Shown piece by piece: positions 4,306 to 26,801 of a DNA stretch of 27,094 nt; the first letter of the stretch is position 1, and every line of letters starts with the position of its first letter. The DNA is from Ectocarpus siliculosus. Lineage: Eukaryota; Sar; Phaeophyceae; Ectocarpales; Ectocarpaceae. Location: contig FN649751.1 of the NCBI GenBank assembly GCA_000310025.1, positions 2,113,579 through 2,140,672 on the forward strand, written 5' to 3'. The position numbers and the translations under genes were made by a program. The notes below the pieces were generated by a model that was not told the origin of the DNA, ran no database searches, and worked only from the letters and a program-made list of their open reading frames with translations.

Positions 4306-6843
4306 CTACGAGGCCTCCACTTGGTCGGCCGCGGGTGGTTTCCTCGATGCTGTCCTGGTCGGAGAACGTTTAGAGACAGCATCGGTGTGAACCAGCGTAG
4401 CGCCGACACTGAACTTCGGCAAGAAGTCCCCCTGCCCTTCGTGATCCGAGCCAAGAGCATCCAGCCACCCGGCTTTCACGTTGGGAAAGGCGTCGCAGTA
4501 GCCGATGTACGGTTTGATGTCCAGCACCGGGGTACCTGTCCAGGAAGCGGGGGCAACAGGATGTGACAACCTCAAAATTATCTCACTCTCGCACTAAACA
4601 GAAACACAACAACAATCACGACACCAACGTTGCACTCGTCGGAGCGCAGCATTTGACAAAATCCAACGATCCTCTCTTGTGACCGTTTTCACCAGCGGTA
4701 ACAAACGGACGTGCTGCTGTGTGAGCTGTTTAGTTGCAAGAGTCTAGCAAGACACCACCATCAACGGCTGAGAGCTATGTAGAGCTCACAAGTTGTGGTG
4801 CACGTCAGGATACATGCGCTTGATTATTATCTCATTGGTTCCATATTTTCTCTTTGTTTACGCTTACCGTCGAGCAGGTCCAGGCCGTGCACGTAGATCA
4901 CACCGTTAGCGGCATCTACCCGCCCCACGCGCAGAGACGACAACGCAATCGCGTTCGGTCTGTGTGGGCTTCGCGTGGAGAAGAGGCCCTTTCTCTCCTC
5001 TGGTAACCGAGGGGGGCGGACCTTGGGATTCCATCCTTTGTTCAGGTGCATGTGGGTTAGTACCCAGATCATGTCGAAACCGCTTAAATCGTGAAGGGCT
5101 TCCTCTGTCCGTGTAACGTCCCACATACATACGAGAGGATGCGTGGGCAGTTGTTTAAAATACGTGTCATGATTCCCAGACGGAAGCAGGATGTGTCTCC
5201 ACGAAGCAAAAGACGTTGGGTCTACCTTTCGAAGATGGCCATGTGCCAACAAATGAAAAGGTGGTGCAGCATGCAGGCGTGCAAACCACCCAACCGACCG
5301 CTAGCACCTGTTTAATCTTGCAAGGGTAATTACAGACAGATGAGGAACTTTATTAAGACTCTCTTGGACCGCCAGGGTGCTCACCATACCCGCGTCCTCG
5401 GAGAAACACGATCTGCCCTTCCTGAGCGCCCCCATGTAGCACAGAGGCGGTCACCTGCGGTTGGCGCGGAGTCCCAAACCTCTCCCGGTACGGACTCCTA
5501 ACCACCGCCACGGGGCGGTATGATATTTCCATCTTGCCGACGTCTTCCACGAAATTGTCCGTGTAGGTAGCGCGTTCTTTAGGCTGCGAACAAAGCACCG
5601 CAAACAACAGCATCGAGAGAGCAAGCTCGCGCTCTCCCCCAACGAACTCATCACCTAGAGCCGTGCGCGCGTTCGCCGCAAAGGATGGAGCTGGTCGCAT
5701 GCTTTGGATGTTCGCCAGAGCTTCGCCATCGTCCGACTTCTGAGCCTCTTCCACTACCGCCCTGGCCTGCTCGAGAGCTGAGAGGGGGTTCAGGTCTGCG
5801 GCCAACCAGTTTTCACATGCTTCCTTCACTACCGCCGCTGTGCTCTTCTGTGGGCTCTTCGCCGCCGCAGCCCTCAGTGCATCCGCAGCTTGCTTCGCCG
5901 TTGCCCTGACGTTGCTCTTCCCCAGCTCAAGTTCAACTACAGATTCAGGGTATGACCCCGCGCGGAAAGCGACGGACACCTTCGCCTGGCCGACGGCAGC
6001 AATGGCAAGCACCATTCGAGACCGAGAACCACGGACGCAGCACTCAAAGTCAGTGTACCTTGTGCCCATAGATCCAGAGCCTTCCTCGCCACCGGGGCGC
6101 TCCGCCAGGCGAGGAAGCACAAGCACGGCATCCGACCGAAGGAGGGCTGGAGTAACATGGCGCAGCTGCGTTGATCTTACGTGTCTGGTAGAAGAAGAGC
6201 TGCCCGCGACGCAAGATCTACCCACGTAGACAAACGAGAGGTCCGGGTTGCGCTGAAGATAGGCGCGCGTAGTCTCGAAGTCCTGCACCGCCCAGCCTGT
6301 TCCTTCCCCGCCCCCAGCGCTTGCCCACGAGCAGCTAACGTAGAGCACACGCAGCTGCTCGACTCCGGCAGTAGCCGCCCTCGCCTGGCCTAGAGAGACA
6401 AGTTGGTCGCGGCATTCGGCGTAAGGCACAAACCGCCCGGCGACGATGAAACATGCCCGTGGGAGGAGAAGAAGCGACTCGTAGTCTCCCTCGCCGATGC
6501 TCTTGATGTAGGATCGGGCAACCCTCGTCCAGGCGTCGAGTGCGAGGCACCGAGGCGCCAGGTTTTTCTTGCGGCTACGGGTCCTTCGCGACGACAGTAG
6601 TACTTGGTTGCTTCGTTTTTCTTCCTCCGATGGCGGCGACGCGACGCCGGCCGCTCTGGCCTTAGAGTTGTCCTCGCTCTTCTTTATCCGTGCTCGACGC
6701 TTGGCCCCCCTGACGCTGCATGGGTGTTGTTGGGTTTCCTTGTTACCCCCACCACCTGCGAACCTCCCAACCGCAAATCCAACCACCAAGGCCGAAGACA
6801 GTGCTAATATGTTGGTCGCAACGGCGGCAACGGTTGGACCCAT
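4306..6843 (-). CDS. TrmO-type tRNA (N6-threonylcarbamoyladenosine37-N6)-methyltransferase domain fused to an unknown N-terminal region
   Basis: Three exons join in phase: 6843-5385, 5104-4868 and 4535-4306 (641 residues). Introns are 5384-5105 and 4867-4536, both GT-AG (GTGAGC and GTAAGC donors). The last ~200 residues are a TrmO (YaeB/TRMO) domain: PVAVVRSPYRERFGTPRQ near residues 444-461, KVRPPRL near 515-520, the family signature STRSPHRPN at 529-537, and DLLDGTPVLDIKPYI at 562-576, which is created exactly by the second splice. In this family the enzyme adds a methyl group from SAM to t6A37 of ANN-decoding tRNAs. Residues 1-437 are unusual for the family: a hydrophobic segment at about 10-30, a basic Ser/Arg/Lys stretch, then a globular-looking region I do not recognise. 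The start is an ATG heading an uninterrupted frame. Spliced structure is confident; membrane location is inference. Confidence 0.85.
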
Positions 6844-9945: not shown

Positions 9946-10098
9946 TCAATTCTTCATGGTATAGTACACCGCTGCTATCGCCCCGATGACTAGCACGAGC
10001 CCGATCCCGTACATGATGCATCTCTGTTGAACCTCTCGTCGGTTCATGTTGTGAACCAGTCGGCGCGCGCTTGTAGTCATGCCTGACACATCTCGCAC
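9946..10098 (-). other. VTI1: SNARE last exon, membrane-anchored version
   Basis: The acceptor ctgttcag lies behind a pyrimidine-rich stretch and precedes a phase-0 exon of 50 residues. It begins VRDVSGMTTSARRLVHNM, continues NRREVQQRC, and has a hydrophobic helix IMYGIGLVLVIGAIAAVYY before a four-residue end. Spaced from Asn162, the hydrophobic layers fall on V, V, T, A, V and M, which completes the SNARE helix directly into the anchor, as in other Vti1 proteins. This is the likely main product. Confidence 0.75.
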
Positions 10099-13000
10099 CT
10101 GAACAGCGAGCGGCAGGCAATGTACCCGAGCAATCAACAATTTTCGTCGCTGTGCTGGAGAACATGATTGTCGCCGTAAATTTCGGTCTCCATGTCCTTG
10201 TCAAATTTAGCGGTCAGGGCCGATTTCAATGCAGGCAAGACAAGTTTTTTTTTCACAGGCGGTACGGCATGGCCATAGTAGCCGCTGCCTCGACGACAAT
10301 ACAATCGTTCCGTTACCCAATGCCAGCTGCCGCTGCTGTACACGCTTCGAGAGGAGAAAAAGAAAATCATGTCGAGCCGTACCAAGGGAAAGAGAGATAG
10401 GAGTGTCGTAGCAGCATCAGCGGGTGTCAAGAGGGGTGATGGAGTGTCGAAAATTGGGCGTCAGCACCTAGTTTTGCCCTTTAGGGTTGGGGGAGTTGGC
10501 TCCATCCGACCTCATTGTAAGGTCCTAAGAGGGCGTAAAGCCGCGACAACCAACACTCCACCACAGACATATGTGACGATCTGCCCACCGTTTCGGGCAA
10601 GGCTTTGTACTGTAGCAGGAACGGCGTGATTTTCAAAGTCCAACAAACGTCACACGCGCCCAAGATTGCTCCAGGGGCCGATGCCGTGGAATGCACATTC
10701 AGCAAAAACGAGCCAAACAGGCGCCGTTATTGCCCAGTTCACTTAAGCTCGGCTGGCAACAGCGAGGCAAGTCGAAACAAAGCACATGTTGTTCGCCCTC
10801 GGTCGGAAGGGAGGCTGTGCAATAACAACCTAACTCAGGGACGTACTCTCGAAAGCTAACCACCGTTGAATGGGGCTCAATACCTAAAATTGTGGCGCTG
10901 TGTCGAACCTAGACTATGTACCTAAGACTACTTCCCAGAACCACAACCAGAATGCACAGAAAAAAACACCCCGTGACATCTAAAGAGGGGTGTGTTGAAA
11001 CAGCAAATAAAACATATTTGCGACAAACCACGGTACTTGAAGAGGGCAAAACCTTCAAGCTTGGTTTTCCGCCTACATAAAACCACAACGCTTTATTCCT
11101 TGGACAAAAAAAAAGAAGGTATCACTCTCAAGTCCTCCAAGCAAAGGCTAGTGCGTATTGCATACACAGGCTGCGTGGAAAGCGTGCGAGAAGCTGATAC
11201 AAAAAAAAAGCCAGGTAGAAAGAATGCTGCGCAGGCACAATCTGTGAAAAGTAAAAAAAAAAACTTTTACATGTATCAACTCTTACGGGAAACCTTCGCA
11301 GATCTACAGCAACCCCCAAAAGAGTGGGATTCCAAGAATCTACGGAACCAGAACACTGCACATCGACCTTCTCGGCAAAACAAGCCGTAGGGAAGGTCGC
11401 ACCACCAAAATATTTACAAGCGGAGCAAAGGGCCACGCCAACAAATCCCAGCAGATTATGATTCGCATCCGCAAACAAACAAACGCCAACCGTATGTCAA
11501 AACCGGAATACAGGTCGGTTCAGCGGCGCGGCGCGGCGCGGCGCGGTTCGGCGCGATGGTTCGTGAATGTTTACAGATTGCGGAACCAGCCGTTCATCTT
11601 GTCGAGGATGCCCTTGCCCTCGTCTAGGTTTGATTTCGTCTCCCGCACCTACCGTATGTCGGGCACGGGCGCGCGCGGGCAACAACAACAACGGCACGCA
11701 CAGCAACGACACACGCAGAGCATCCCATGTGTGTGTGTGAGAGAGAGAGACATACGCCGCTAACTCGTCGACCAAGGATCCCTCGCACGAGCAGGGAGTT
11801 AACACTGTTTACCGAAGAACAACTACGGGACGCATTGCAATGCCACAAGTCATGCCCGTAAACAAACACTTTCGCTTGGCAGCAACTCGCCTGAGGCTAG
11901 ATCCTGCTCAAGTGAGTCCATTCGCACGACTGACCAAAGCAAACGCGGAACCCCCGTTAAGCAACGTTCACATCACAATAAAACACCATTGTCCCAGCCA
12001 AAGCCTGCACATACCCTTGGACTAAAACGTGGGATATATATACCATCCTCCATAAAAGCCAAACTCGAAACACAGGGCAGCGAACTGCCAAAACGCTCGT
12101 GCGCTTCACATATCGAACAGTACGGCACTGCAGCAGGGTGCGGTGTGGACCTGCTTGCGCGAACCCCCTGCTTGGTACCAGGCAAGCAAGCACCTTGTGC
12201 AACACGCACCCGGGGCGGGGCTTCGTGTCTCAGGGGCACCGGCGAATGACATATGTAGGCCATGCACAGCACCCAACAGCTTTGTGCGGGCTTGACATAG
12301 AGAGGTGAAAGTAAACCATCCTTTGAGTGGATGGTTTGAGTTTGGACGGGTCTGATAATTGTTGGCTCGGAGCGCGCTGAGGACACTTTAAGAAAAAAGC
12401 CATGTGGTTGAAAAAATGGTGTGACCGTATCCATATATCTTACGCGTGACGTACTGCTGTATGGGTCAGAAAAGGACCAAGGATCTCCTGTATGCATGTC
12501 CGTGTAGACGGTCAGGTGAGGTCGTTTGCTATATAACTTGAGGCTCGGCGGGAACAGCGACCACTGTAGGGACGGCCCGAACAGTTAACTATCTTTGGGG
12601 GCACGAACGGCCAAGGCTAACGTTGCGCGGCCTATAAGAAGAAAGCCAAGACACCGTCATCGGGCACTCCGTCCGTTCCTCCCAACTCCTCACCTTGTCG
12701 TGCACCTCTCCGATCTTCTCTCGGTTCCGTCCCAGCTCCGTCGTGATTTCCATTGCTTTTCGATCATACGAACGATGAGACACAAAGACGGGCCGCGAGC
12801 AAAAGTTATGGTTGTTTCGAGACACGGCAATGTTGTTTTCGAGACACGTGCTGAGTGTTGCGGACGGAGAACAGATGGGCGGAAAATGTGGGCCGAGGTG
12901 TGGCAAAATTGCTGGCACTTCAAGTAAGGGCGCCACGAACCAGTGGTAGCTCTCGGAACGTTCACCTACCATGCTTGATAGCCCGAGGCCGGGAAAGCCT

Positions 13001-13563: not shown

Positions 13564-14984
13564 CCGCTCACCGGTGTCCTCAATCTCCATCATGGTTCTC
13601 TTGCTGTCCTCTAATCGCCGACTCTGCCCGTCCAGGCGGTCGGTCGTTTGCAGCAGTCGATCCCGCTGCTCCTGCGAGGCGCCGCCCTGCGCGAACGCCT
13701 GCCGCGCCGCACGGAAAGAAACGCAAGCAACGCGCGAAGAAGGGGATTATAGCACGTGACCTGGGCACGACGCGGGCAACGCGTCACAAGAACAATGAGG
13801 AGCGCCCACAGCAGCTGAAGCCAACGACACAAGCCCGACACACAGCGTCATATCATGAATATTGCAGCATAGACGGGAGGCAACGCAGGGGGGCACCAAG
13901 AGACTTTGCGAGACCTCGTTCTCTGGGCGGTGACTACTCGACACCAGCATGACGTCACTGCCACCGCCGAAATGGCCGTCAAGCCCATTTCGTTGGGAGA
14001 GGGCACACGAGGTGACAAGAGTGTCTCTGCTCTATTGCTCCGCTCAGCTCCGTGCGCGATGCCTCGCCGTGCGAAAATCTCACCGCCTCTCTCCCTCCCA
14101 GAAGCCCCTCCCGCTCTTGCTTCTCCACAGCCCGCTGGTAGTCCCCTCGCAAAGACTGGAGCGTCTTCTTGTAGCTGGCGATCTTGCTGTTGGTCGTTGC
14201 GACAGAGTCGGTAGAGTAGTGGAGAGCAGCCCGGTGGCGGGGGTTAAGGGTTTAAATGCCAGGGCGTTGCATTCGGAGAGGGGCTTCCAAACTAAACCGC
14301 GCGGACAATCGGGTGCTTCGAGAGGAACCTCGAGCAGCAAGGGTTATGATACACAGGTGCTTGGTCGAAGCCAGGCTCCTGTATGAAAGTCTACCGATTT
14401 GACTCCTGGAAAGCAGTAACCAAGATCCGTCTTCTGAAGCAGTATAAATAGCGCTTTGATTAGGTGCCCATTTTGAGGTGGGGGTACTGGCGTGTGCTCC
14501 TTGTTGGGCTCGAGTTACATGTTACATGACAGGAGTTTGTGCGTGCATGCTCTCTTTCCCCCCCTGGTCCTCTCGCCGTGCCCTGATCTTTCTCTCGGTC
14601 TCCCCCTCTGCGTGGGTTTGCGAGTCTGTATTTCTGTATATCGCATCGACCGCGCTTGACCAACGAACATACGCCAATTTCATAGGGGGATATAATGCGT
14701 AAAGAGGCTTTCTGTAGTCAAATCCAAGTCCCGGGAAGGGGGGGCGTACTCTTAAGTATTGCATGCCTTAGCGGTAGACCATTGACCACGCGTCCTCGAG
14801 AGGATGGAGCATTGTTCCCACACGACCGATCACCGATTGGGATCCCAGGAGGGGGGGGGGGGATTCGAAGAATAGGCGTTGCCTGAACGTGTGTACATCT
14901 GTCTACCGCCTTACGTTCTACCTGCTGTGGGCTTGCTGGCCGTGGTGCTTTGTTCCGTCGAGAGCTAACCTGTCTCTGCCTCTT

Positions 14985-15023
<39 letters not shown>

Positions 15024-16219
15024 CACTCTTTACTCCCTCTCTGACTGTCTGTCCGTCTTTCCGTCCCTCCCTCCCTCATCCTTCGTCACATACTGCTGCT
15101 GCCTTACTGCCTCAACTCTGCGGCGTCTCCGCCCCTCCTGCTAAATAATGCCGTGCATATAACGGGTGTCTTCTGCACGAAAGCGTGCTCCGGTAGGTAC
15201 TGCTGTGTTTACACGCCGCACGCCGCAACTCACTCACCCCTGCAGCTCTTTCTTGCTTGCGGCATCCTGCGTGCTGCGGACTTCGATCTCCATCTGCTTA
15301 AGCAGATCCCCGGCCTGCCCCACGAGGGCATCGATGTGCGTCAACTGCGTTCGTTTTTTCCCTTCAAGAAACGGGCATCGTGGACAAGGCGCCAAAAAAA
15401 AAATGGGAGGACTGCTGGTAAGTCGATACTATATGGTGGAAGGGACACCCGCGAAGGTGGTCGGTCGTGAAAATTTGGCATCGCATTAGAGCGCCATTTA
15501 TTGCCCCCGCGATAGATTTGTGATTCCAGGACGAAGAGATTGGCCAGGAACGAGAATCACCGTTTGTGCTCACCTCGCAAATACGTGCCTAGGGAAAAGA
15601 GGTGTTCAATGTAGTGAGTGAGAGCTGATGTAAAGTGATCAACAAGAAGAGTGAGAGCTGATGTAAAGTGATGAACAAGAAGGTGTATGCCTTGCCTATG
15701 GATACGATGAGCAGCACATGCATAGATTACCATTTCATCATTCCACCGGTACCTGTTCGTACCAGGCATCATAAGTGGTGCCTTCCCAACTTCCTTTTTG
15801 AAAGTTTGCCAAGAGAAAGGGTGATGGACAGCAGTGGTTAATGCAGGGGGGGCGGGGGCGAGTACAACACCACCCATGCTACGCACCTTGGGCTATGGAT
15901 GGTACACCAGTACGATACCATGTGACAAGGTGATCAGGAAATGGGTTCGGAGTGCTCCAGAGAGCGTACAGCAGGTTCTTCGAATTTGGCGGGGGAATTC
16001 TGACATGGAGCGACCTCGAACAAACAGATGGGCACGGCGTAGTTTTACGTCCTGAGAGGGGGGACGGCTTTTGTTGTACGACACCATGGAAGAGAGACTT
16101 CGGCCAGAGACAGACTCACCGGCGTCGGTCTCGTAGGTGTTCAAGTGGCTGATGTTGTTGCCGATGTCCTGGGTGAGAGCCAAGAACTCCTCGTCGTAGG
16201 CCTCGAAAATCGAAGACAT
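9946..16219 (-). CDS. VTI1: Vti1-type Qb-SNARE, two alternative last exons
   Basis: Five shared exons join in phase: 16219-16120, 15361-15238, 14186-14084, 13698-13572 and 12755-12694 (172 codons). They are followed either by 10098-9946 (50 residues, transmembrane anchor) or 11648-11571 (25 residues, no anchor). The start reads MSSIFEAYDEEF, as in other Vti1 proteins. Exons 2-3 give the N-terminal three-helix domain (GQAGDLLKQMEIEVRS, then KIASYKKTLQSL). Exons 4-5 give the SNARE motif (LLQTTDRLDGQSRRLEDSKR, then AMEITTELGRNREKIGEV). The anchored form is 222 residues, the usual Vti1 size. Family knowledge: Vti1 is the Qb-SNARE of Golgi, endosome and vacuole fusion. By alignment with animal Vti1a the central 0-layer position is Asn162, where those proteins have Asp and yeast has Gln. 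The assembly gap lies inside intron 4 (13571-12756), so no coding bases appear lost. Confidence 0.85.
11524..11556. repeat. GGCGC-type short tandem repeat
   Basis: Five-base units (ggcgc with one variant) repeat just downstream of the anchor-less SNARE exon, inside the long intron that leads to the anchored exon. The tract is nearly pure G+C. Confidence 0.7.
11571..11648 (-). other. VTI1: SNARE alternative last exon without a membrane anchor
   Basis: The acceptor acggtag precedes a phase-0 exon of 25 residues, VRETKSNLDEGKGILD then KMNGWFRNL and a TAA stop. It fits after exon 5 (donor AAG/GTGAGG) exactly as the anchored exon does. Its layer residues (V, T, L, G, L, M) and the pattern RET-xx-NL-x5-IL-xx-M match animal Vti1a more closely than the anchored exon does. 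After the last SNARE layer it stops with a Trp/Phe-containing tail. A possible donor (GTAAAC) overlaps the last codon and stop, so joining to a further exon cannot be excluded. Confidence 0.6.
13221..13320. other. Assembly gap
   Basis: One hundred unknown bases, a conventional placeholder length, so the true gap size is not known. It falls in intron 4 of the SNARE gene. Confidence 0.99.
13321..13526. other. Low-quality or artefactual homopolymer-rich sequence beside the gap
   Basis: The stretch is made almost only of runs of A, C, G and T two to twenty-two bases long, including a pure C run at about 13497-13518. The texture is unlike anything else nearby except the far right end. It directly abuts the gap, which suits unreliable read ends. 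The neighbouring dinucleotide repeat may have caused the sequencing failure. Confidence 0.8.
13527..13558. repeat. (CT)n microsatellite
   Basis: A pure CT dinucleotide run of about 16 units. It lies 13 bases downstream of the exon 4 donor of the minus-strand SNARE gene, where it reads as (AG)n. Confidence 0.9.
14985..15022. repeat. (TCTG)n microsatellite
   Basis: About nine tetranucleotide units in intron 2 of the SNARE gene, flanked by further pyrimidine-rich sequence. Confidence 0.95.
15618..15683. repeat. 33-bp tandem duplication
   Basis: Two adjacent copies of a 33-base unit starting gtgagagctgatgtaaagtg differ by one or two bases (positions 15618 and 15651). They lie in intron 1 of the SNARE gene. 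Confidence 0.9.
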
Positions 16220-16741: not shown

Positions 16742-17613
16742 ATGTCGAACCGCGGCAAGCAGTTCAAGGCGCTCTCTCCAAAGAAGGTGTCCAGGAGGAA
16801 ACGCACCCCTCGCTGCGACTCGTGCGGCAAGCGAGATGGAGAGGACGCGGGCGGCGAGGGTCAACCAAAAATCCGCCTCAAGCTGTGCGCGCGTTGCAGA
16901 GCAGTGGCCTACTGCGGGATGGAGTGCCAGAAGGTATGCATATGTACGGTACACAGACACACAGGGTAACGTCGACTTGTGGTTCAGAGGCTATTTGAGG
17001 TTGGATGTTGGATGGTTGTGATGCGCCAGCTGGGGGTACTCATAGAAAGCTGGTCTCGTGCTGTGGTTTGTGTGTTTCTTACTTCTTGAACGTACAAGTG
17101 TCACCACCCCGTTGTGCTTCGTATACATCTACAATTACTCCACCACGGCTCTGCACAGCAGTACAGTACGCATGCAAACTACGGTTGTGAGACAACCTCC
17201 CGGCGCGCACCATTGGCCCGTGGTATTACACAAGCAACATTCTCCCGCCGATTCACCACCCGTTCCCCCCTTCGCCCCACCCCCCCTGCTGGCAACACGA
17301 AAGGCGGGCTGGAAAGTACACCGGGAGGTGTGCGTGCACTACGCCAGCGCGGCCGAGCTTCCCTCGCAGTCCCCGTTGGTGAATCACCAGAAGGTCTCCG
17401 GGACCGGCCAGCGGGGCAGCAGGCGAAAAGTAATCTACGGCGGCGCCGTGGGAACCGTTGGAGCCACCCCCCGCCAGAGGGAGCACGCGCCCACGAGGCA
17501 CCCGTTCTTCGGGCGGCAGAATTCGATCGAGAGCGATAGGCGCGCCACGGTCGGGAACCCCCAATCGTCGAAGGCGTTACGGGAGGGACAGCGGCAGCAG
17601 CAGCAGCAGCAGC

Positions 17614-17658
<45 letters not shown>

Positions 17659-20600
17659 CGGAAGAAGCACGGCGACAGTCGCCGCAGACGACCCAGACAG
17701 CGAGCGAGGAAGAACCCTGTCCATCTCCCCCGATGATGCAACGGCTAAGCTATCCGGGGGGCGGCCGAAGCCGGCAAGGCTCGAAATCGGGCAACATCGG
17801 GGGGAATGACGCCAAGCGCCCCTCACCCGTCGGCAAGAGTCCTTCCGAGAAGCAACAGCCTCGGCAGAGTCCTGGAGCAGCGGTGGCCGCCGCCGTCAAG
17901 ATGGCAGCCTCGCGAGCGCGTCGACGGACACACAACCTGACGAAGGGCGGACGCGCCTACGGCAGCCTCTCGCCGACGCCGCCTCCCCCCGACGCCGAGG
18001 AAGTCAAGAGGAGGCGCTCCGGCTCCGGCCCCGTCCGGAGAGAGAGCGCGCCGCTCTACCCCGCAGTGCTGGAGAAAACGAAACGTCTCGCGGCAAGGAA
18101 AGATGCCTCGCTCACGGCAGACGCTAGTCGGAGAGGACCTCCGCCGCCGTACTCTTCCGTTGCTCACCGCGCCGAGTCTGCCAGGAAGCCACCACCTTCC
18201 ACCAGCCCTAATGATGGCAAGGCCGCGGCAGCACCCCCGCGAAGATCTTCGTCGACCGCGGACGTCCGGCAAACTACTCGCATCCCGCCGCCATTGCCTC
18301 CGCGCCCTTCGGTAAGCCTTGACGCGAACACGGCGTTCCCGCGCGGCTCGTCGCTGTCGCCAGGGCTTGCCGGCGGTACTTCGACAGGATCGCCGCAACA
18401 GCTCGCACCGGAGAACAAAGCGGGAGGAGACCAACCGGCGGGTGAGCACGAATCGACGGCAGGGAAGGGTGTCGAGGCGCCGCGAGAGTCGCAGCTGGAG
18501 AACGAGAAACCGCAGGTTTCGAGGTCCGGCGGAGGCGGGGAGGCGGAGATCGACGCGCTCGAGGTGCCAAAAGAAGGAGAGGGCGAGGGGACGCAGGCAG
18601 CACGGGAGGGCGGGGAGGAGGAGGAGGAGGAGGAGGAGGAGGAGGAGGAGGAGCCGACGCCTGAGCCTAGAGCTGGCGACGACGCGCAAGCGCGGGATGC
18701 GCGCGGGGCTCCCGAATGGGTTGTCCCGTCGCCCGTGGCTAAGGACCGCTCGCAGGACTCGGCGGCAGGCTCTCCACGGGCGCGAGAGGACGACAACGGG
18801 GTGGTTCCGGTGCAGCCGGCCCTCACGAAAGGTTCTGCACACGAAGTATCGCAAGATTTGGCTGCAGGTTCTGTGTTGGGTCGGGAGGGCGATCCAGCTC
18901 TGGCGAAGGATTCCGCCGCAGGTTCGTCGCGAGACTCGGCGGCAGGCTCTCCACGGGCGGGAGAGGACAGCAGCGTGGTTACGGTGCAGCCGGCCCTGAC
19001 GAAAGGTTCTGAACACGATTTATCGAAAGATTCGGCTTCAGTTTCTGTGTCGGACCGGGACGGCGACGCAGATCTGGCGAACGATTCCGCCGCAGGTTGG
19101 TCGCGAGACTCGGCGGCAGGTTCTCCACGGCCGCGAGAGGAGGACAGCAGCGTGGTGCCGGTGCAACCGGCCCTGACGAAAGGTTCTGAACACGAAACGT
19201 CGCAAGATTCGGCTGCAGGTTCTGTGTTGAGTCGAGAGGGTGGAACAGCCGCCGCAGGTTCGTCGCGAGACTCGGCGGCAGGTTCTCCTCTGCCGCGGGA
19301 GGACAACGTGGTGCCGGCGAGGCCGGCCATGGCGAAAGGGTCGGCTGGGACGGTGTCGCAAGACTCCGCTGCGGGTTCCATGTCGGGCCAGGAGGGCGAC
19401 GCAGCAGGCGTTCCCGTGCGGCCATCGCTGGCGCCCTGCTCCGTCGATTCCCTTTCGCAAGACTCCGCGGCGGGATCTACGACGGCGCACGAGAACCACC
19501 AAGCGCCTGCCGTGCCACTCCCCATGGAACCACCTCCACCCATCCAGACGTCCTCCAAGACGGGAGCCTCGAGCCTAGCGGACACAGGAGTGTTTGACTC
19601 GTGCCCACCCTCGACCGGGGCAAGTCCATCGGAGCCCGGCTCCCAACGATCTCTATCGGTCGGCACCGTGCCCCAGTTCCTCTCGATGCCTCTCGTGCTG
19701 GCAGCCAGAGAGAAAGCTTCGGCGGCGGTGGCGGCTTGGCAGAAGGATCGCAGGAACTCCCCTAGGCCTCGCCCTCCGGTCAGCCCGGGACCGGCGGCGC
19801 TGTCGCAGTCTTCGCCGCTGAAGTCGGCCTTCCGCTTCCGGAAGCCTTCGGCGGCGGTGGAGCACGACGACGAAGGGCCGGAGATAACCCCCCCCTCCGC
19901 CGCGACCTTGGGAGGCGGGTCGGGGAGAAAGTTGTCGGCACCGCCCTTGTCGCGCACATTCTCGGCGCTTTCTAGCGCGGCGAGCCATGCATCACCTGGG
20001 TCGGCTTCCCGGTCGGCTTCCCGGACGACGCGCCCGCCGTTCGTGCCGACCATCGAGCTGTCCCCCCGGGCGAGCCTGCCGGCCTCGCCTCACGCCCCGG
20101 GTCCAAGGATCACCGACACAGCGAAGTTTTACCGGGAGCGGGCAAACGCGGCGCCGGCGCCGGCGGGCGACATCGGCTTGTTGCCCCCGGCGTCCAAGGC
20201 GTACTTCGGCCGGCCCTCCGGCTTCTCCGTGCACGTGCTGGTAGCGTCCGCTCTTTCGGCTGCCGATCTTGGGGACCGACAGCAGCAGCACCTCGAGGGC
20301 GGCGGCAACAACAGCCCTCGACTGTACTACTCGTTCGAGGACCGCGGGAGGGTGGCGGAAGCGCTGCGCCCGGGAGACGTGGTCCTGGTCACTCCGGGGC
20401 GGTACGAGGCCCGGGCGTGGGGCTTGCAGCGCTTGGTGTCGAGCGTCGAGATCATCGGGGCCGGCGACGCCGGCGACTGCGTGCTGTACAACGACCGGGT
20501 CTCTTCGGGCCCCGATGGGGAGCACTATCTCGTCGGGGTGATGGGGGGCGCGCTGGGCAGCGCCGGCGCCGGCGGGGCGAGCGTGCCGGAGGTCAAGGGC

Positions 20601-22465
20601 AAAGACGTGGTCGCGGACGACGACGACAGCGACAGCGGATTCGAGGACGGCGCGCTGGGACCCGCGAACAGCTTGGTCCACTCCTTCAGCAGCAGGGCGG
20701 TGCGAGTGCGCCTCGCCAACCTCACCCTTGAGCAGGGCTCCGGGTACAGGGGCACGGTGTATCAGCTCGGGCGAGAGTCGCACCTGGAGATGGACGGCTG
20801 CACGGTGGCGGGCTCGAAGGGGGGCGTCAACATCGACCAGGGGACCTGCATCATCTGCGACTCTTGGATCTCCGGCAGCGAGGTCTTCGGCGTGCACATT
20901 GGCGGAGAGGGCGCGGTAGAACACTGCTCGATCCGCGGCTGCGGCCGCGGGGGTCGAGGAGGAGGAGGAGGAGAAGAAGGAGGAAAGTATTTGTCGTCGT
21001 CCACCGTATGTAACGCCGGGGACGAGGACGAGGACGAGGACGACGATGACGGCACGGACGTGAATCGGGTCGGGAGCATGCCGGCTATCAGCATCCTCCA
21101 GAGCTCGCGCGTGCGTGTGCGCTTCAACGTGATCCGAGACAACGCCGGGCACACGCTGCAGTACCGGGACGCCCCCCTACCCGGCGGGGACGGAAAGTAT
21201 GCCCTCCTGGCACGGCGAGCGGAGGCGGAGGCGGAAGAGGTACGCTTGCGTGTGGTTATTGGTCTTGCTTCTTGTGAGCGCCCGCTATGTATGTTTTCTT
21301 TTGTTGTCTTTGCTTAGTGTGTTTTTTGTGTTTTGAAACGGGTCTCGATACAGGTAAGTTTTTTTCTTGTGAGGGAATGACTGTTTGAAGACCTCCCTTT
21401 TTTATTTCCTTGACATGGCTCCACCATTCTACATGTAGTACGGCATTGGTACCACTTTGCTCAAGTTGGTATTTTAGATGCGCTGATCGTGCGTTGGGTT
21501 CGCTCGATAAAGACGATTGCCCCGCTCGGTTTTCGCACGCACTTATTTGAAGCATCGTGCATGATCGATGGATTGACTTCACGGTTGGGCCTGTCGTCCA
21601 GCGTTCGATTTTCCAACATCTAATCTAGCTAGCCACCTCTAGGTTCGGTGTTCTTTGTACCTGTTTTCGACTGCCCGTGTTCTTGAACGCGGTCATGTTG
21701 CCCGAAATTCAGCTCAAAGGCCAAACCTCCGCTTCATGGAGAGAACAGACTGTGCTAAGGTCATCAAACGCTTCCCGCCGGACAGACCCAAGCTTGGACC
21801 GTACGGTTTTCCAGCCCCTTGTTTTTAGAAAAAACATGCATGAAACATACTGAAAGACTGCCCGTTCGGAATACAACCACGGTCGTTTTTAGCTCGAGTG
21901 CGACTGACTCCATACTCTCGCGTGTTGCTCCGTTGCGTGGGTCCAACCCTAACCCTCTCTTCTCCCGCAGAAGCTGAGGTCGTGGCTCGGGTCTGCATCG
22001 GTCTTACTCCGAGAGCACCTCCAAGGGCAGCACCGTGAAGGCTCCGTCGTCTCCGAGGGCAACCAGTGCCACCTTAACAGGGGGTGCGACCTCGCGCGCT
22101 GCTCCGGAGGGGGCGCGGCAGAGGAGATCGGAGCAGCAGCTCGGGGGGGGGCTGGCGGTGGGTCCGTGGCCTCCGGCGCTGCAGCCGAGTCCACGGCCGG
22201 CGAAGGAGAGGGTCTGGAGCCGGAAGTCGGTGGTCAGGAAATAGGTGAAGAAGTGTCGCGTGATGGTCCCGGCGGGGGGGAGACGCGGACGGGAACGCTG
22301 AGGGGGCAGCAGACCTGTGTCCCCACGGCGGAGGAGGAAGGGCTTCCCTTACCGGCGGCCATGACGCTGCGATTCCTTGCCGCGATGGATGAGGGCTACG
22401 TCGGTAGCAGGCGGGAGGAGAACGCCCGGTTGAAGAAGAGAAAGAAGGAGGGTGGGGCGGGCTAA
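16742..22465 (+). CDS. MYND zinc-finger protein with a right-handed beta-helix-like C-terminal region
   Basis: Exons 16742-16933, 17304-21239 and 21971-22465 join in phase 0 (1540 residues). Splice 1 completes a perfect MYND finger: C25, C28, C49, C52, C58, C62, H70, C74, with the last two from exon 2. MYND fingers usually bind proline-rich peptides. Next come a Gln run (160-182, two Arg), long Pro/Ser/Arg-rich disorder, a run of 13 Glu (502-514), and about four 54-59-residue repeats built on DSAAGS (549 to about 785). From about 1038, short strands and turns resemble a pectin-lyase-type beta-helix (GDVVLVTPGRYEA, VEIIGAG, then about 1196-1284 and 1324-1353 with TVYQLGRESHLEMDGCTV and VNIDQGTCIICDSWISGS). 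The acid tracts inside it look like loop insertions. The tail is Gly/Glu-rich and ends in Lys/Arg. Exon 3 has a strong acceptor (ttctcccgcag). The start is the first ATG in an open frame. Function unknown. Confidence 0.8.
17589..17657 (+). repeat. CAG repeat encoding polyglutamine
   Basis: Mostly pure CAG codons, broken by two CGG (Arg) and one CAA, encode residues 160-182 of the MYND protein. Being in frame inside a disordered stretch, its length is probably free to vary between strains. Confidence 0.95.
18615..18653 (+). repeat. GAG repeat encoding polyglutamate
   Basis: Thirteen uninterrupted GAG codons encode residues 502-514 of the MYND protein, just before the DSAAGS repeat block. Confidence 0.95.
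18756..19485 (+). repeat. Coding tandem repeat block (DSAAGS units)
   Basis: Copies begin at gactcggcggcagg at 18756, 18933, 19107 and 19269, spaced 177, 174 and 162 bases, all multiples of three. A partial fifth copy follows. Each unit has two or three DSAAGS-like hexapeptides and a segment close to VVPVQPALTKGSEH. The units differ by substitutions and in-frame deletions, so the block has been kept in frame. Confidence 0.85.
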
Positions 22466-24776: not shown

Positions 24777-26515
24777 CTAGACAATATCCGAGTTTCTAGT
24801 AACCCCTTCATCCACCGCCGCCGCCGCAGCCGCCGCAGCCGCAGCCGGCCCAATTGGTGCCAATTCATATTCTGCGCTAGCACCGCCACCACCTCTCCTT
24901 CGCCCCCCGCCACCGTCAAACCTGTTCCTGCCAAACAAGCCCCGCAGCGCCGACGACCTACCGCCGACTGCCGCGTCTCCGCCACCGTCGCCGCTGCCGG
25001 TGCTGCTGCTGCTGCTGCTGCTGCTACCCCCGGGGCTGCTGCTGCCGAGGCTCTCCGGGGAGACGTGCGGCGACGGCTCCGCCCCGCCGAAAAACGCCGC
25101 TATGTTGGCGTTCAACACTCTCATCCTCCTCGTCTCTCCGTCAAGCGGAGAGTCCTCGTCGTGACCGGTGTCGCCGCGATCGTCGTCCAACTTTTCCTCC
25201 CCGTTGCTACCGTCATCGTCGACCCGCTGCCACTGCCGCCGCCCCCCGCGCCCCTCGCCGCCGCCGCCGCCGCCGCCGCCGTCTCCAGAGTGGGCGAAAA
25301 GTCGCGCCAAGGAAGACGGCAGTCCTCGAAACCAAGCTCCCACGGGCGTTGGCGTTCGTGTCGGGGTCGCTGTTGTCGCGGGCACGGTGCTATCGCGGTG
25401 CTGCTGCGCTCGCTGCGCTGCTGCTTCTGCCGCTGCTCTCAAGCGACGACGCCGCCGGCGATTTCGCCTCAAGCCTTCGCGGGCGCTGCGCTTGCAGAGC
25501 GGACACGACACGGACAGATGCAGCCACTCGTCCACGCACTTCTGATGGAAGAAATGGAGGCTGGGGGATGGGGACGGACATGTCCGCGCAGATGCGGGAG
25601 GGGCGGCGATTTAGGAGGTACAGTACAGTATGCGTAGACGTAGCACCATCGGGAGTAAACGGCGAACGGGGGGAACTAGGAGATGCTTTACGTGCCATGG
25701 CGACACGGCCCTGCCTTTTGTAGAAGCACTGACACATTTCGGGAGGTCCTTCGCAATAGTACCCACTGGTTCTACTTACAGCCCGGGTGTATTTCATCCT
25801 TCTCGCCGAGCTGCTATATACCCGCGTGGATAATCCATTTACAATATAACTCCGCGGCTTCCAGCACTGTGCTTAAATCTAAGAGGAGTGGCCTTGCTCG
25901 TACTGTCGAGTTGACCCGGGTTTACGCCGCCTTGACTTTCCAAGTTTGACTCCACACAAAAATGGATCTATTATAGTTACTACTTCGAGTTCCACATTAC
26001 ACAACATCAGCAAAAGGGAGCCACACGTGAGTGACTCCCGGAGAGAGCGAGCGGCCTGTGGTACATCTTTCACCCCCATGCATCCGCCCTCGCTGCCTAT
26101 AGACTCACCAAGGAAGCTTGCGCAGCACGTCGCCCTCCTCGAAGCCGCCAAGGCAGATCGCACAGTCCGCGGACGAGGCTGCCTCCGCACCCTGCGCGAT
26201 GAAAGCCTCGTCGTCCCCGCCCGTCACCCCCGCCGATTCCACCCCCCCCCCCTTTTCCTCGCTCCCACTACTACTCCTGCTGCTGGTGGGGCTAACCTTC
26301 TCTCCGATCAGTTCAACACCGCTGCTGTCGCCGCCCCCGTCCGCCGCGCAGCTGTTGTCGTCGTTGCCCTTGTCTTTCGAGACGATGTCGATGGCGGTCG
26401 AGTACTCGACGGTCTCCAGGCAGTCCAGCTCCGACGGGGAGAGGCCCCGGTGCCGAGAAAACGCCCTCCGCCGCAGGGTTCCGTGGCGATCCCTGAGGCC
26501 GATAATTAATAACAT
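24777..26515 (-). CDS. RING-H2 zinc-finger protein, probable E3 ubiquitin ligase; 5' end probably incomplete
   Basis: Exons (26515-)26109 and 25560-24777 join across a 548-base GT-AG intron. The splice creates one of the zinc-binding cysteines (TG+C, C136). Numbered from the ATG at 26515 (396 residues), the ligands are C118, C121, C136, H138, H141, C144, C155 and C158: C-x2-C-x14-C-x-H-x2-H-x2-C-x10-C-x2-C, the canonical RING-H2 form with WL before CPLC. Such domains bind E2 enzymes and transfer ubiquitin. The tail carries an Arg-rich stretch, Gly, Ser and Ala runs and no recognised domain. The frame stays open upstream of 26515 to about 26614 and reads a hydrophobic segment (TLVLVLVPC, then LMLLIIGL) that the chosen ATG would cut in half. 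This suggests a membrane-anchored ligase with further 5' exons beyond 26614, perhaps in or past the poor sequence on the right. Confidence 0.75.
25003..25022 (-). repeat. GCT/AGC trinucleotide run (polyserine codons)
   Basis: A short run of AGC codons on the minus strand encodes serine in the disordered tail of the RING protein. A neighbouring GCC-type run at 25260-25281 encodes glycine, and one at 24815-24845 encodes alanine. Confidence 0.8.
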
Positions 26516-26801
26516 GAGAGCGCAGTCGCAACCAACGCAGGGAACCAAGACGAGAACGAGAGTACGCAGGGCGGGGAGCTTGTTCGGACTGCCTTCGCCA
26601 GGGTATTGTTTGCTTTATCAATGATCGAGAGACTGGGGTTTCGTAGCACTAAACCTAATCTCCCTAACTCAAACCCGTGACTTACCCTACTAAACTCAAG
26701 CATTCGCGAAGGCTACAAGTTTGTTCCGCTGGGCGGAGCAAAGAATTGTGCCGGAGGGAGGGCGGAAACGGACATACAATCGAAAAGTGCTGAATAGCGA
26801 C

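What the first reader, a model, noticed from the sequence alone, without database searches (positions are those of the whole stretch)
9946..12755. Vti1 SNARE gene with two alternative last exons: anchored versus anchor-less
Exon 5 ends in phase 0 in the middle of the SNARE helix. Two downstream exons (11648-11571 and 10098-9946) each follow an AG acceptor in phase 0, each start with VR after GTGCG, and each supply layers +3 to +8. One adds a transmembrane helix (222 residues in all); the other stops after GWFRNL (197 residues). The anchor-less exon is closer to animal Vti1a over the helix, so it is unlikely to be chance translation of an intron. A soluble Qb-SNARE made by terminal exon choice could act as a natural inhibitor of fusion or join complexes by another route.
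Basis: partly seen in the sequence, partly recalled or inferred. Interest (0 to 1): 0.85.

Follow-up and report, generated by a model that had tools for sequence, protein, structure and literature searches.

The report
Vti1 gene with anchor-less alternative ending
A membrane-fusion gene, probably of a brown alga, carries two different final exons that each complete its fusion helix, one with and one without the membrane anchor, so it can probably make both an anchored and a soluble form; no RNA was seen, and the design resembles one known in human syntaxin 3.

Summary
A minus-strand Vti1 gene has five shared exons; exon 5 ends in phase 0 within the SNARE helix. Two later frames can complete it: 6a (11648-11571; 197 aa, no anchor) and 6b (10098-9946; 222 aa, anchored). 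6a is very unlikely to be chance: over layers +3 to +8 it is the best match to Vti1a among 7,082 AG-preceded open frames in 126 kb, its codon usage exceeds 99.7% of 2,039 open windows of this gene's introns, and it raises the Pfam SNARE score from 23.9 to 40.2 bits. Serial splicing of 6a into 6b is argued against: donor and acceptor score -8.3 and -9.3 bits, against at least 5.2 and 0.6 for real sites. The genome also holds a second, plainly anchored Vti1 gene, closer to 6b than to 6a. 6a keeps the helix layers but not the basic residues before the membrane. Because yeast Vti1 with a full SNARE domain and no anchor supports fusion in vitro, I favour a fusion-competent peripheral Qb-SNARE over an inhibitor. 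Transcripts, poly(A) sites and conservation could not be tested. Syntaxin 3 has a similar terminal-exon design: a new variant of a known kind.

The parts
16120..16219 (-). Vti1 exon 1 (start codon; Habc domain)
   Evidence: Pfam V-SNARE N-terminus matches residues 1-94
15238..15361 (-). Vti1 exon 2 (Habc domain)
   Evidence: exon hit in genome search
14084..14186 (-). Vti1 exon 3 (Habc domain)
13572..13698 (-). Vti1 exon 4 (linker and start of SNARE motif)
12694..12755 (-). Vti1 exon 5 (SNARE motif up to layer +2; phase 0 donor AAG|GTGAGG, 10.6 bits)
11571..11648 (-). alternative last exon 6a: layers +3 to +8 (V T L G L M), ends GWFRNL stop, no anchor; acceptor 5.6 bits
11092..11097 (-). AATAAA, 473 nt after the 6a stop; weak evidence (8 of the 13 window matches are on this strand, so about 0.4 expected in this 1.5 kb)
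11402..11402 (-). first base of a donor-like site GTG|GTGCGA, 6.0 bits, 168 nt after the 6a stop: would make 6a a poison exon if used
9946..10098 (-). alternative last exon 6b: layers +3 to +8 (V V T A V M), basic linker and transmembrane helix; acceptor 10.2 bits

Best explanation
The gene encodes the Qb-SNARE Vti1 and ends by choice of terminal exon. If splicing joins exon 5 to 6a and the transcript is cleaved and polyadenylated inside the old intron, a 197-residue Vti1 is made with a complete Habc domain and a complete SNARE helix but no anchor. If 6a is skipped, exon 5 joins 6b and the usual tail-anchored 222-residue Vti1 is made. Shown by sequence: the exon anatomy, the exon-like codon usage of 6a, helix layers +3 to +8 in both endings, the lack of a donor of ordinary strength inside 6a past its first codon. 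Inferred: that both transcripts are made, that polyadenylation falls between 11570 and 10100, and that the soluble form works as a peripheral Qb-SNARE that joins Qa/Qc/R bundles at a membrane (as anchor-less sQb does in yeast reconstitutions), tuning rather than simply blocking endosomal or vacuolar fusion.
For: 6a improves V-SNARE_C from 23.9 to 40.2 bits and is the best of 7,082 AG-preceded frames over layers +3 to +8. Its codon usage is exon-like: 11.4 bits, above all 5,684 windows of chaperonin introns and 99.66% of 2,039 windows of this gene's introns. Of the 12 acceptor-like sites of 5 bits or more between 12650 and 10090, only 6a and 6b, read in phase 0 and judged by eye, continue a SNARE helix. 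The 6a acceptor (5.6 bits) lies within the range of 23 training acceptors (0.6-14.6) and of this gene's other four (1.5-10.6). The two GTs inside 6a past its first codon score -0.7 and -8.3 bits, against 5.2 or more for real donors. AlphaFold of the 6a form gives three Habc helices and one unbroken SNARE helix 118-196; mean pLDDT 85.6, block means 91-94 from residue 171 to the end. 6b resembles the anchored paralogue on C4 (10 of 25 identical). Precedents: soluble Vti1 supports fusion (PMC8143792, passages); STX3A/STX3B swap half of the SNARE motif and the anchor by alternative terminal exons (PMC11476516 and PMC8263458, passages).
Against: No RNA or conservation data. The 6a acceptor is weaker than that of 6b. 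Base composition after 6a did not tell 3' UTR from intron, in a test that was itself flawed, and the AATAAA is no more than chance would give. A donor-like site after the 6a stop (11402, 6.0 bits) leaves room for a poison exon. Training sets are small (23 introns, 50 exon hits, one protein family). Over all 25 residues 6a is only 3rd of 7,082 frames. The paralogue on C4 shows no such split: its SNARE helix, from about profile position 5 on, and its anchor lie in one open frame.
Confidence: 0.62

Rival explanations
1. Serial splicing: 6a (donor CT|GTAAAC, first intron base 11574) joins an acceptor inside 6b (exon from 10021), so that 6a supplies the helix and 6b only the anchor (221 residues).
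For: The phases fit and the product ...WFRNL-CIMYGIGLVLV is collinear with Vti1 (read; phases).
Against: Donor TCT|GTAAAC scores -8.3 bits (real donors 5.2-11.6) and acceptor CAACAGAG|A scores -9.3 bits (real acceptors 0.6-14.6). The skipped part of 6b would then encode SNARE layers for no reason, though it ranks first of 870 frames and matches the paralogue at 10 of 25.
Confidence: 0.04
2. Poison exon: inclusion of 6a, joined onward to 6b through the donor at 11402, puts a stop far upstream of the last junction and sends the mRNA to decay, lowering Vti1 level.
For: A 6.0-bit donor lies 168 nt after the stop.
Against: Six donor-like sites of 5 bits or more occur in this 1.56 kb stretch (one of them is the 6a start itself), so such a site is unremarkable. 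A poison exon needs no SNARE layers, yet 6a keeps them and has exon-like codon usage.
Confidence: 0.13
3. 6a is a relic: a former last exon, left from a duplication of the gene's end, no longer spliced in.
For: 6a and 6b share 29 of 75 bases (440 of 20,000 codon shuffles reach this), in line with a duplication; no transcript evidence.
Against: The frame is intact, in phase, with an acceptor of ordinary strength and exon-like codon usage. The whole-genome protein search showed no other piece of a second gene copy beside it.
Confidence: 0.15
4. The soluble form is made and acts chiefly as a natural inhibitor that titrates Qa/Qc/R partners.
For: A soluble SNARE domain could compete for partners (general knowledge, from no call).
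Against: With a complete SNARE domain soluble Vti1 supports HOPS-dependent fusion in yeast reconstitutions when Qa and R are anchored; removal of layers past +3 abolishes it unless Sec17 and Sec18 are added (PMC8143792, passages). An inhibitor would not obviously need the kept +3 to +8 layers (inference).
Confidence: 0.2

Closest known systems
Vti1 family (Qb-SNARE; animal Vti1a/Vti1b, yeast Vti1p)
   Same: Habc (PF05008) plus V-SNARE_C (PF12352) over the curated cut-offs; helix collinear with 2nps Vti1a.
   Different: Second, anchor-less ending; the zero-layer residue (position recalled) is N (LGRNREK), where 2nps has D and the C4 paralogue Q.
Syntaxin 3 alternative terminal exons (STX3A/STX3B, and the truncated form 3D)
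   Different: STX3 is a Qa-SNARE (class recalled); 3A and 3B differ in, and so both have, an anchor; 3D is described as lacking both SNARE and transmembrane domains. Here a Qb-SNARE would keep the whole SNARE helix and lose only the anchor.
sQb, engineered anchor-less yeast Vti1 used in vacuole fusion reconstitution
   Same: Vti1 with complete SNARE domain and no anchor (PMC8143792, passages).
   Different: Man-made; here the form would be genome-encoded.
Vti1a-beta brain isoform of vertebrates
   Same: Splice isoform of a Vti1 gene (seen as a cited title and in passages on a brain-specific microexon of vti1a, PMC12626420).
   Different: A microexon, not a change of ending; recalled, from no call: both Vti1a forms keep the anchor, and the microexon is the beta insert.

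Membership tests
Vti1 Qb-SNARE | N-terminal Habc domain (PF05008) | tested here: met
   74.7 bits (6a form) and 67.6 bits (6b form), cut-off 25.9; three helices before the SNARE helix in the 6a-form model
Vti1 Qb-SNARE | Qb SNARE motif (PF12352) through layer +8 | tested here: met
   40.2 bits with 6a, 33.9 with 6b, cut-off 27.1; 23.9 without either
Vti1 Qb-SNARE | C-terminal transmembrane anchor | tested here: inconclusive
   6b has a hydrophobic 19-mer of mean 2.33 at 10020; no 19-mer of mean 1.8 or more lies in 6a: met by one ending, not by the other
Vti1 Qb-SNARE | Glutamine at the zero layer | tested here: not met
   N in this gene (against the alignment); animal Vti1a has D at the same place, so the feature does not exclude Vti1
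Alternative last exon (skipped terminal exon) gene | one donor, two acceptors in the same phase, each exon with its own stop | tested here: met
Alternative last exon (skipped terminal exon) gene | no usable donor in the proximal exon | tested here: inconclusive
   none of ordinary strength within the 6a coding part past its first codon, but a 6.0-bit site 168 nt after its stop
Alternative last exon (skipped terminal exon) gene | poly(A) site after each stop | tested here: inconclusive
   composition and AATAAA not informative
Alternative last exon (skipped terminal exon) gene | both transcripts present | not testable with these tools
   no RNA data held

The most novel reading that the evidence does not exclude
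A natural counterpart of the engineered anchor-less Vti1: the alga makes, by terminal exon choice, a full-helix soluble Qb-SNARE that is fusion-competent, so that the anchor of a Qb-SNARE is an optional, regulated part.
Probability: 0.35. Interest if true: 0.68.

Novelty: new variant of a known kind. Interest (0 to 1): 0.5.

Why it matters
Which SNAREs of a fusing bundle need a membrane anchor has been probed with engineered soluble forms (for example PMC8143792, passages). A gene that encodes both versions of one Qb-SNARE, with the whole helix kept in the soluble one, would give a natural test in a multicellular lineage separate from animals and plants. It would also show that swapping the C-terminal half of a SNARE by terminal exon choice arose in a Qb-SNARE and not only in syntaxin 3.

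Tried and rejected
Chance intron translation was rejected. Serial 6a-to-6b splicing was argued against by splice-site scores (the first line printed there for this donor was one base off, the value used, -8.3, is from the GT list of the same call). A separate anchor exon for 6a: hydrophobic stretches occur between 6a and 6b in T-rich DNA (11462, 11263-11254, 10992-10968), but neither GT inside 6a past its first codon scores above -0.6 bits, so none was pursued. Duplicate gene copy: the whole-genome search with the 6a form gave 8 matches, 6 of them exons of this gene and 2 with E above 6; it did not list the C4 paralogue. That second gene was found through PF12352 and PF05008 and read. The first exon-2 start tried (15344) broke the frame and was replaced by 15361.

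3' UTR composition from five chaperonin genes did not separate UTR from intron. The test is flawed: the frame of L007 ended before the hit ended, and by eye the stops taken for L005, L010 and L012 are not the true ones either. AATAAA was uninformative. A viral-contig scan with the 6a form found no relative (10 pattern matches, 0 confirmed). PF05739 in the genome gave 8 matches at 8 separate places, none in tandem; that search would probably not have seen 6a itself.

Literature: ten searches, seen as listings; three lists were cut short (15 of 611 papers, 12 of 36, 12 of 82). In none of these listings did I see an anchor-less Vti1 isoform or a study of brown algal Vti1. Poly(A) signals of brown algae were not searched (one search failed on a term format).

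Rows dropped: 33 neighbouring exon pairs were formed, 10 gave no admissible junction and 23 were used. In one search, 50 of 59 chaperonin hits were used; 9 hits with a stop inside were left out, but 2 others with a stop were kept. The chaperonin-intron null and the exon set were also the training data; the 2,039 windows of this gene's introns were not. In one search the loci L001-L004 were left out of the frame set (L001, L003 and L004 overlap other pieces; L002 does not).

Full report
What is there. The window lies at C26:2113579-2140672 of a 189 Mb genome. 102 matches to the WSC domain (150 of 244 candidates scored) fit a brown alga (that link is recalled, from no call); the species is not known. 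On the minus strand five exons (e1 16219-16120, e2 15361-15238, e3 14186-14084, e4 13698-13572, e5 12755-12694) encode the Habc domain and the SNARE motif of a Vti1 protein up to layer +2 (layer spacing recalled). Exon 5 ends in phase 0 with a strong donor, AAG|GTGAGG, 10.6 bits. Two later frames, each after an AG in phase 0, complete the helix: 6a at 11648-11571 (stop after GWFRNL) and 6b at 10098-9946 (basic linker, transmembrane helix).

Is 6a more than chance? Pfam V-SNARE_C scores 23.9 bits for exons 1-5 alone, 40.2 bits with 6a and 33.9 bits with 6b; the 6b form also matches Sec20 weakly (22.3 bits, under its cut-off of 27). Against solved structures, Vti1a 2nps is the best match of the 6a form (32.6 bits) and the second best of the 6b form (27.3 bits). 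Among 870 AG-preceded open 25-codon frames on the minus strand of the window, 6b and 6a rank first and second against the 2nps helix; without the AG condition 6b is first and 6a shares third place of 29,628 open windows on both strands; 106 and 71 of 200,000 residue shuffles reach the scores of 6a and 6b. In a larger set of 7,082 AG-preceded frames over 125,897 bases, 6a ranks first over the 18 residues of layers +3 to +8 (34, next 26); over all 25 residues 6b is first (26), an unrelated frame on C4 second (22) and 6a third (20). So 6a keeps the layers and not the membrane-proximal part. Layers +3 to +8 read VTLGLM in 6a, VVTAVM in 6b, LTLSLM in Vti1a and VTAALI in the C4 paralogue.

Codon usage, trained on 50 chaperonin exon hits against introns of the same genes, gives 6a 11.4 bits. 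None of 5,684 open intron windows of those genes (in-sample) and 0.34% of 2,039 windows of this gene's own introns (held out) reach that; 24% of the 50 training exon windows score as low or lower. The helix part of 6b scores -2.3, below all 50 exon windows, and its anchor part 5.3. Windows overlap, so these are ranks and not probabilities. The low score of the 6b helix does not make it doubtful by itself, since 6b shares 10 of 25 residues with the anchored paralogue, but 6a is the more exon-like of the two.

How the ends can be joined. A donor and acceptor model was built from 23 introns of chaperonin genes. This gene's own sites, not used in training, score 5.2-10.6 bits (five donors) and 1.5-10.6 bits (four acceptors of e2-e5). 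The 6a acceptor scores 5.6 and the 6b acceptor 10.2. A serial splice, from CT|GTAAAC at the end of 6a to an acceptor inside 6b at 10021, would be in frame and collinear (221 residues). Both sites score far outside the real range, -8.3 and -9.3 bits, so this is unlikely. The two GTs inside 6a past its first codon score -0.7 and -8.3 bits. Of 12 acceptor-like sites of at least 5 bits between 12650 and 10090, only 6a and 6b continue a SNARE helix in phase 0, judged by eye. A donor-like site of 6.0 bits lies after the 6a stop (11402), one of six of at least 5 bits in 1.56 kb, so a poison exon is not excluded.

A second Vti1 gene. The strongest V-SNARE_C match in the genome is on C4 (54.5 bits; 53.7 bits for the read frame), with a Habc match about 1.7 kb upstream that is under the cut-off (21.1 bits) but aligns with this gene over KxMEIEVRS; this gene's own Habc exons are also under the cut-off when searched one by one. 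Its last frame carries the SNARE helix and the anchor together and shows no split. The 6b ending resembles it (37% over 47 residues, E 0.056; 10 of 25 residues); 6a does less (4 of 25). The likeliest history, an inference, is that the anchored ending is shared ancestry and that 6a arose beside it, perhaps by duplication (29 of 75 bases alike; 440 of 20,000 codon shuffles reach this), then kept its layers and lost the membrane-proximal residues.

What it probably does. The model of the 6a form shows three Habc helices and one unbroken SNARE helix 118-196 (single-sequence AlphaFold, mean pLDDT 85.6, pTM 0.52). [quoted passage not shown] A form that loses only the anchor and keeps all layers is what selection for a working soluble Qb would leave; an inhibitor would not obviously need the +3 to +8 layers. 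That is an argument and not a test.

What is known. [quoted passage not shown] Alternative splicing of tandem exons is reported in brown algal ROCO genes (PMC11378527, passages, one of them from the abstract). I saw no report of an anchor-less Vti1 isoform in the listings of the searches named under Tried and rejected. Hence: new variant of a known kind.

Limits. No RNA reads, no relative with the same intron, small training sets, an assembly gap and low-quality DNA in intron 4, no evidence on poly(A) sites. The claim that both exons are real coding ends is well supported; that both are used, and the role of the soluble form, are inference.

Noticed in passing
window 12755-12694 (minus), residue N of LGRNREK: The zero-layer residue of this Vti1 is N, where animal Vti1a (2nps) has D and the C4 paralogue Q (layer position recalled).
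   Followed up: partly
L015 (G000:C4:3520700-3529699), minus strand: Second Vti1 gene with SNARE helix and anchor in one frame; the genome has at least two Vti1 genes.
   Followed up: yes
G000 C2:7060781, C10:2685146, C12:2395851, C118:95717: Four matches to the second half of the SNARE motif (PF05739, positions 26-53, or 26-48 on C118) in open frames of 62-63 aa, E 0.04-1; maybe one exon shared by several syntaxin genes.
   Followed up: no
window 13572-13200: Intron 4 holds a gap of N (about 13320-13221) flanked by homopolymer-rich, probably low-quality assembly.
   Followed up: no
window 4827-5252 (minus): Frame with a TrmO N-terminal domain (tRNA methyltransferase O; 81.3 bits); the 496-aa frame at 5353-6843 (minus), with no Pfam match, may belong to the same gene.
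   Followed up: partly
window 17058-21317 (plus): Open frame of 1419 codons, low-complexity, with a weak right-handed beta-helix match near its end (20.7 bits, under the cut-off).
   Followed up: partly
window 26105-26548 (minus): Possible start of a RING finger (21.5 bits, under the cut-off of 27).
   Followed up: partly
window, both strands: AATAAA occurs 13 times against 6.3 expected; 0 of 100 shuffles reach 13.
   Followed up: no
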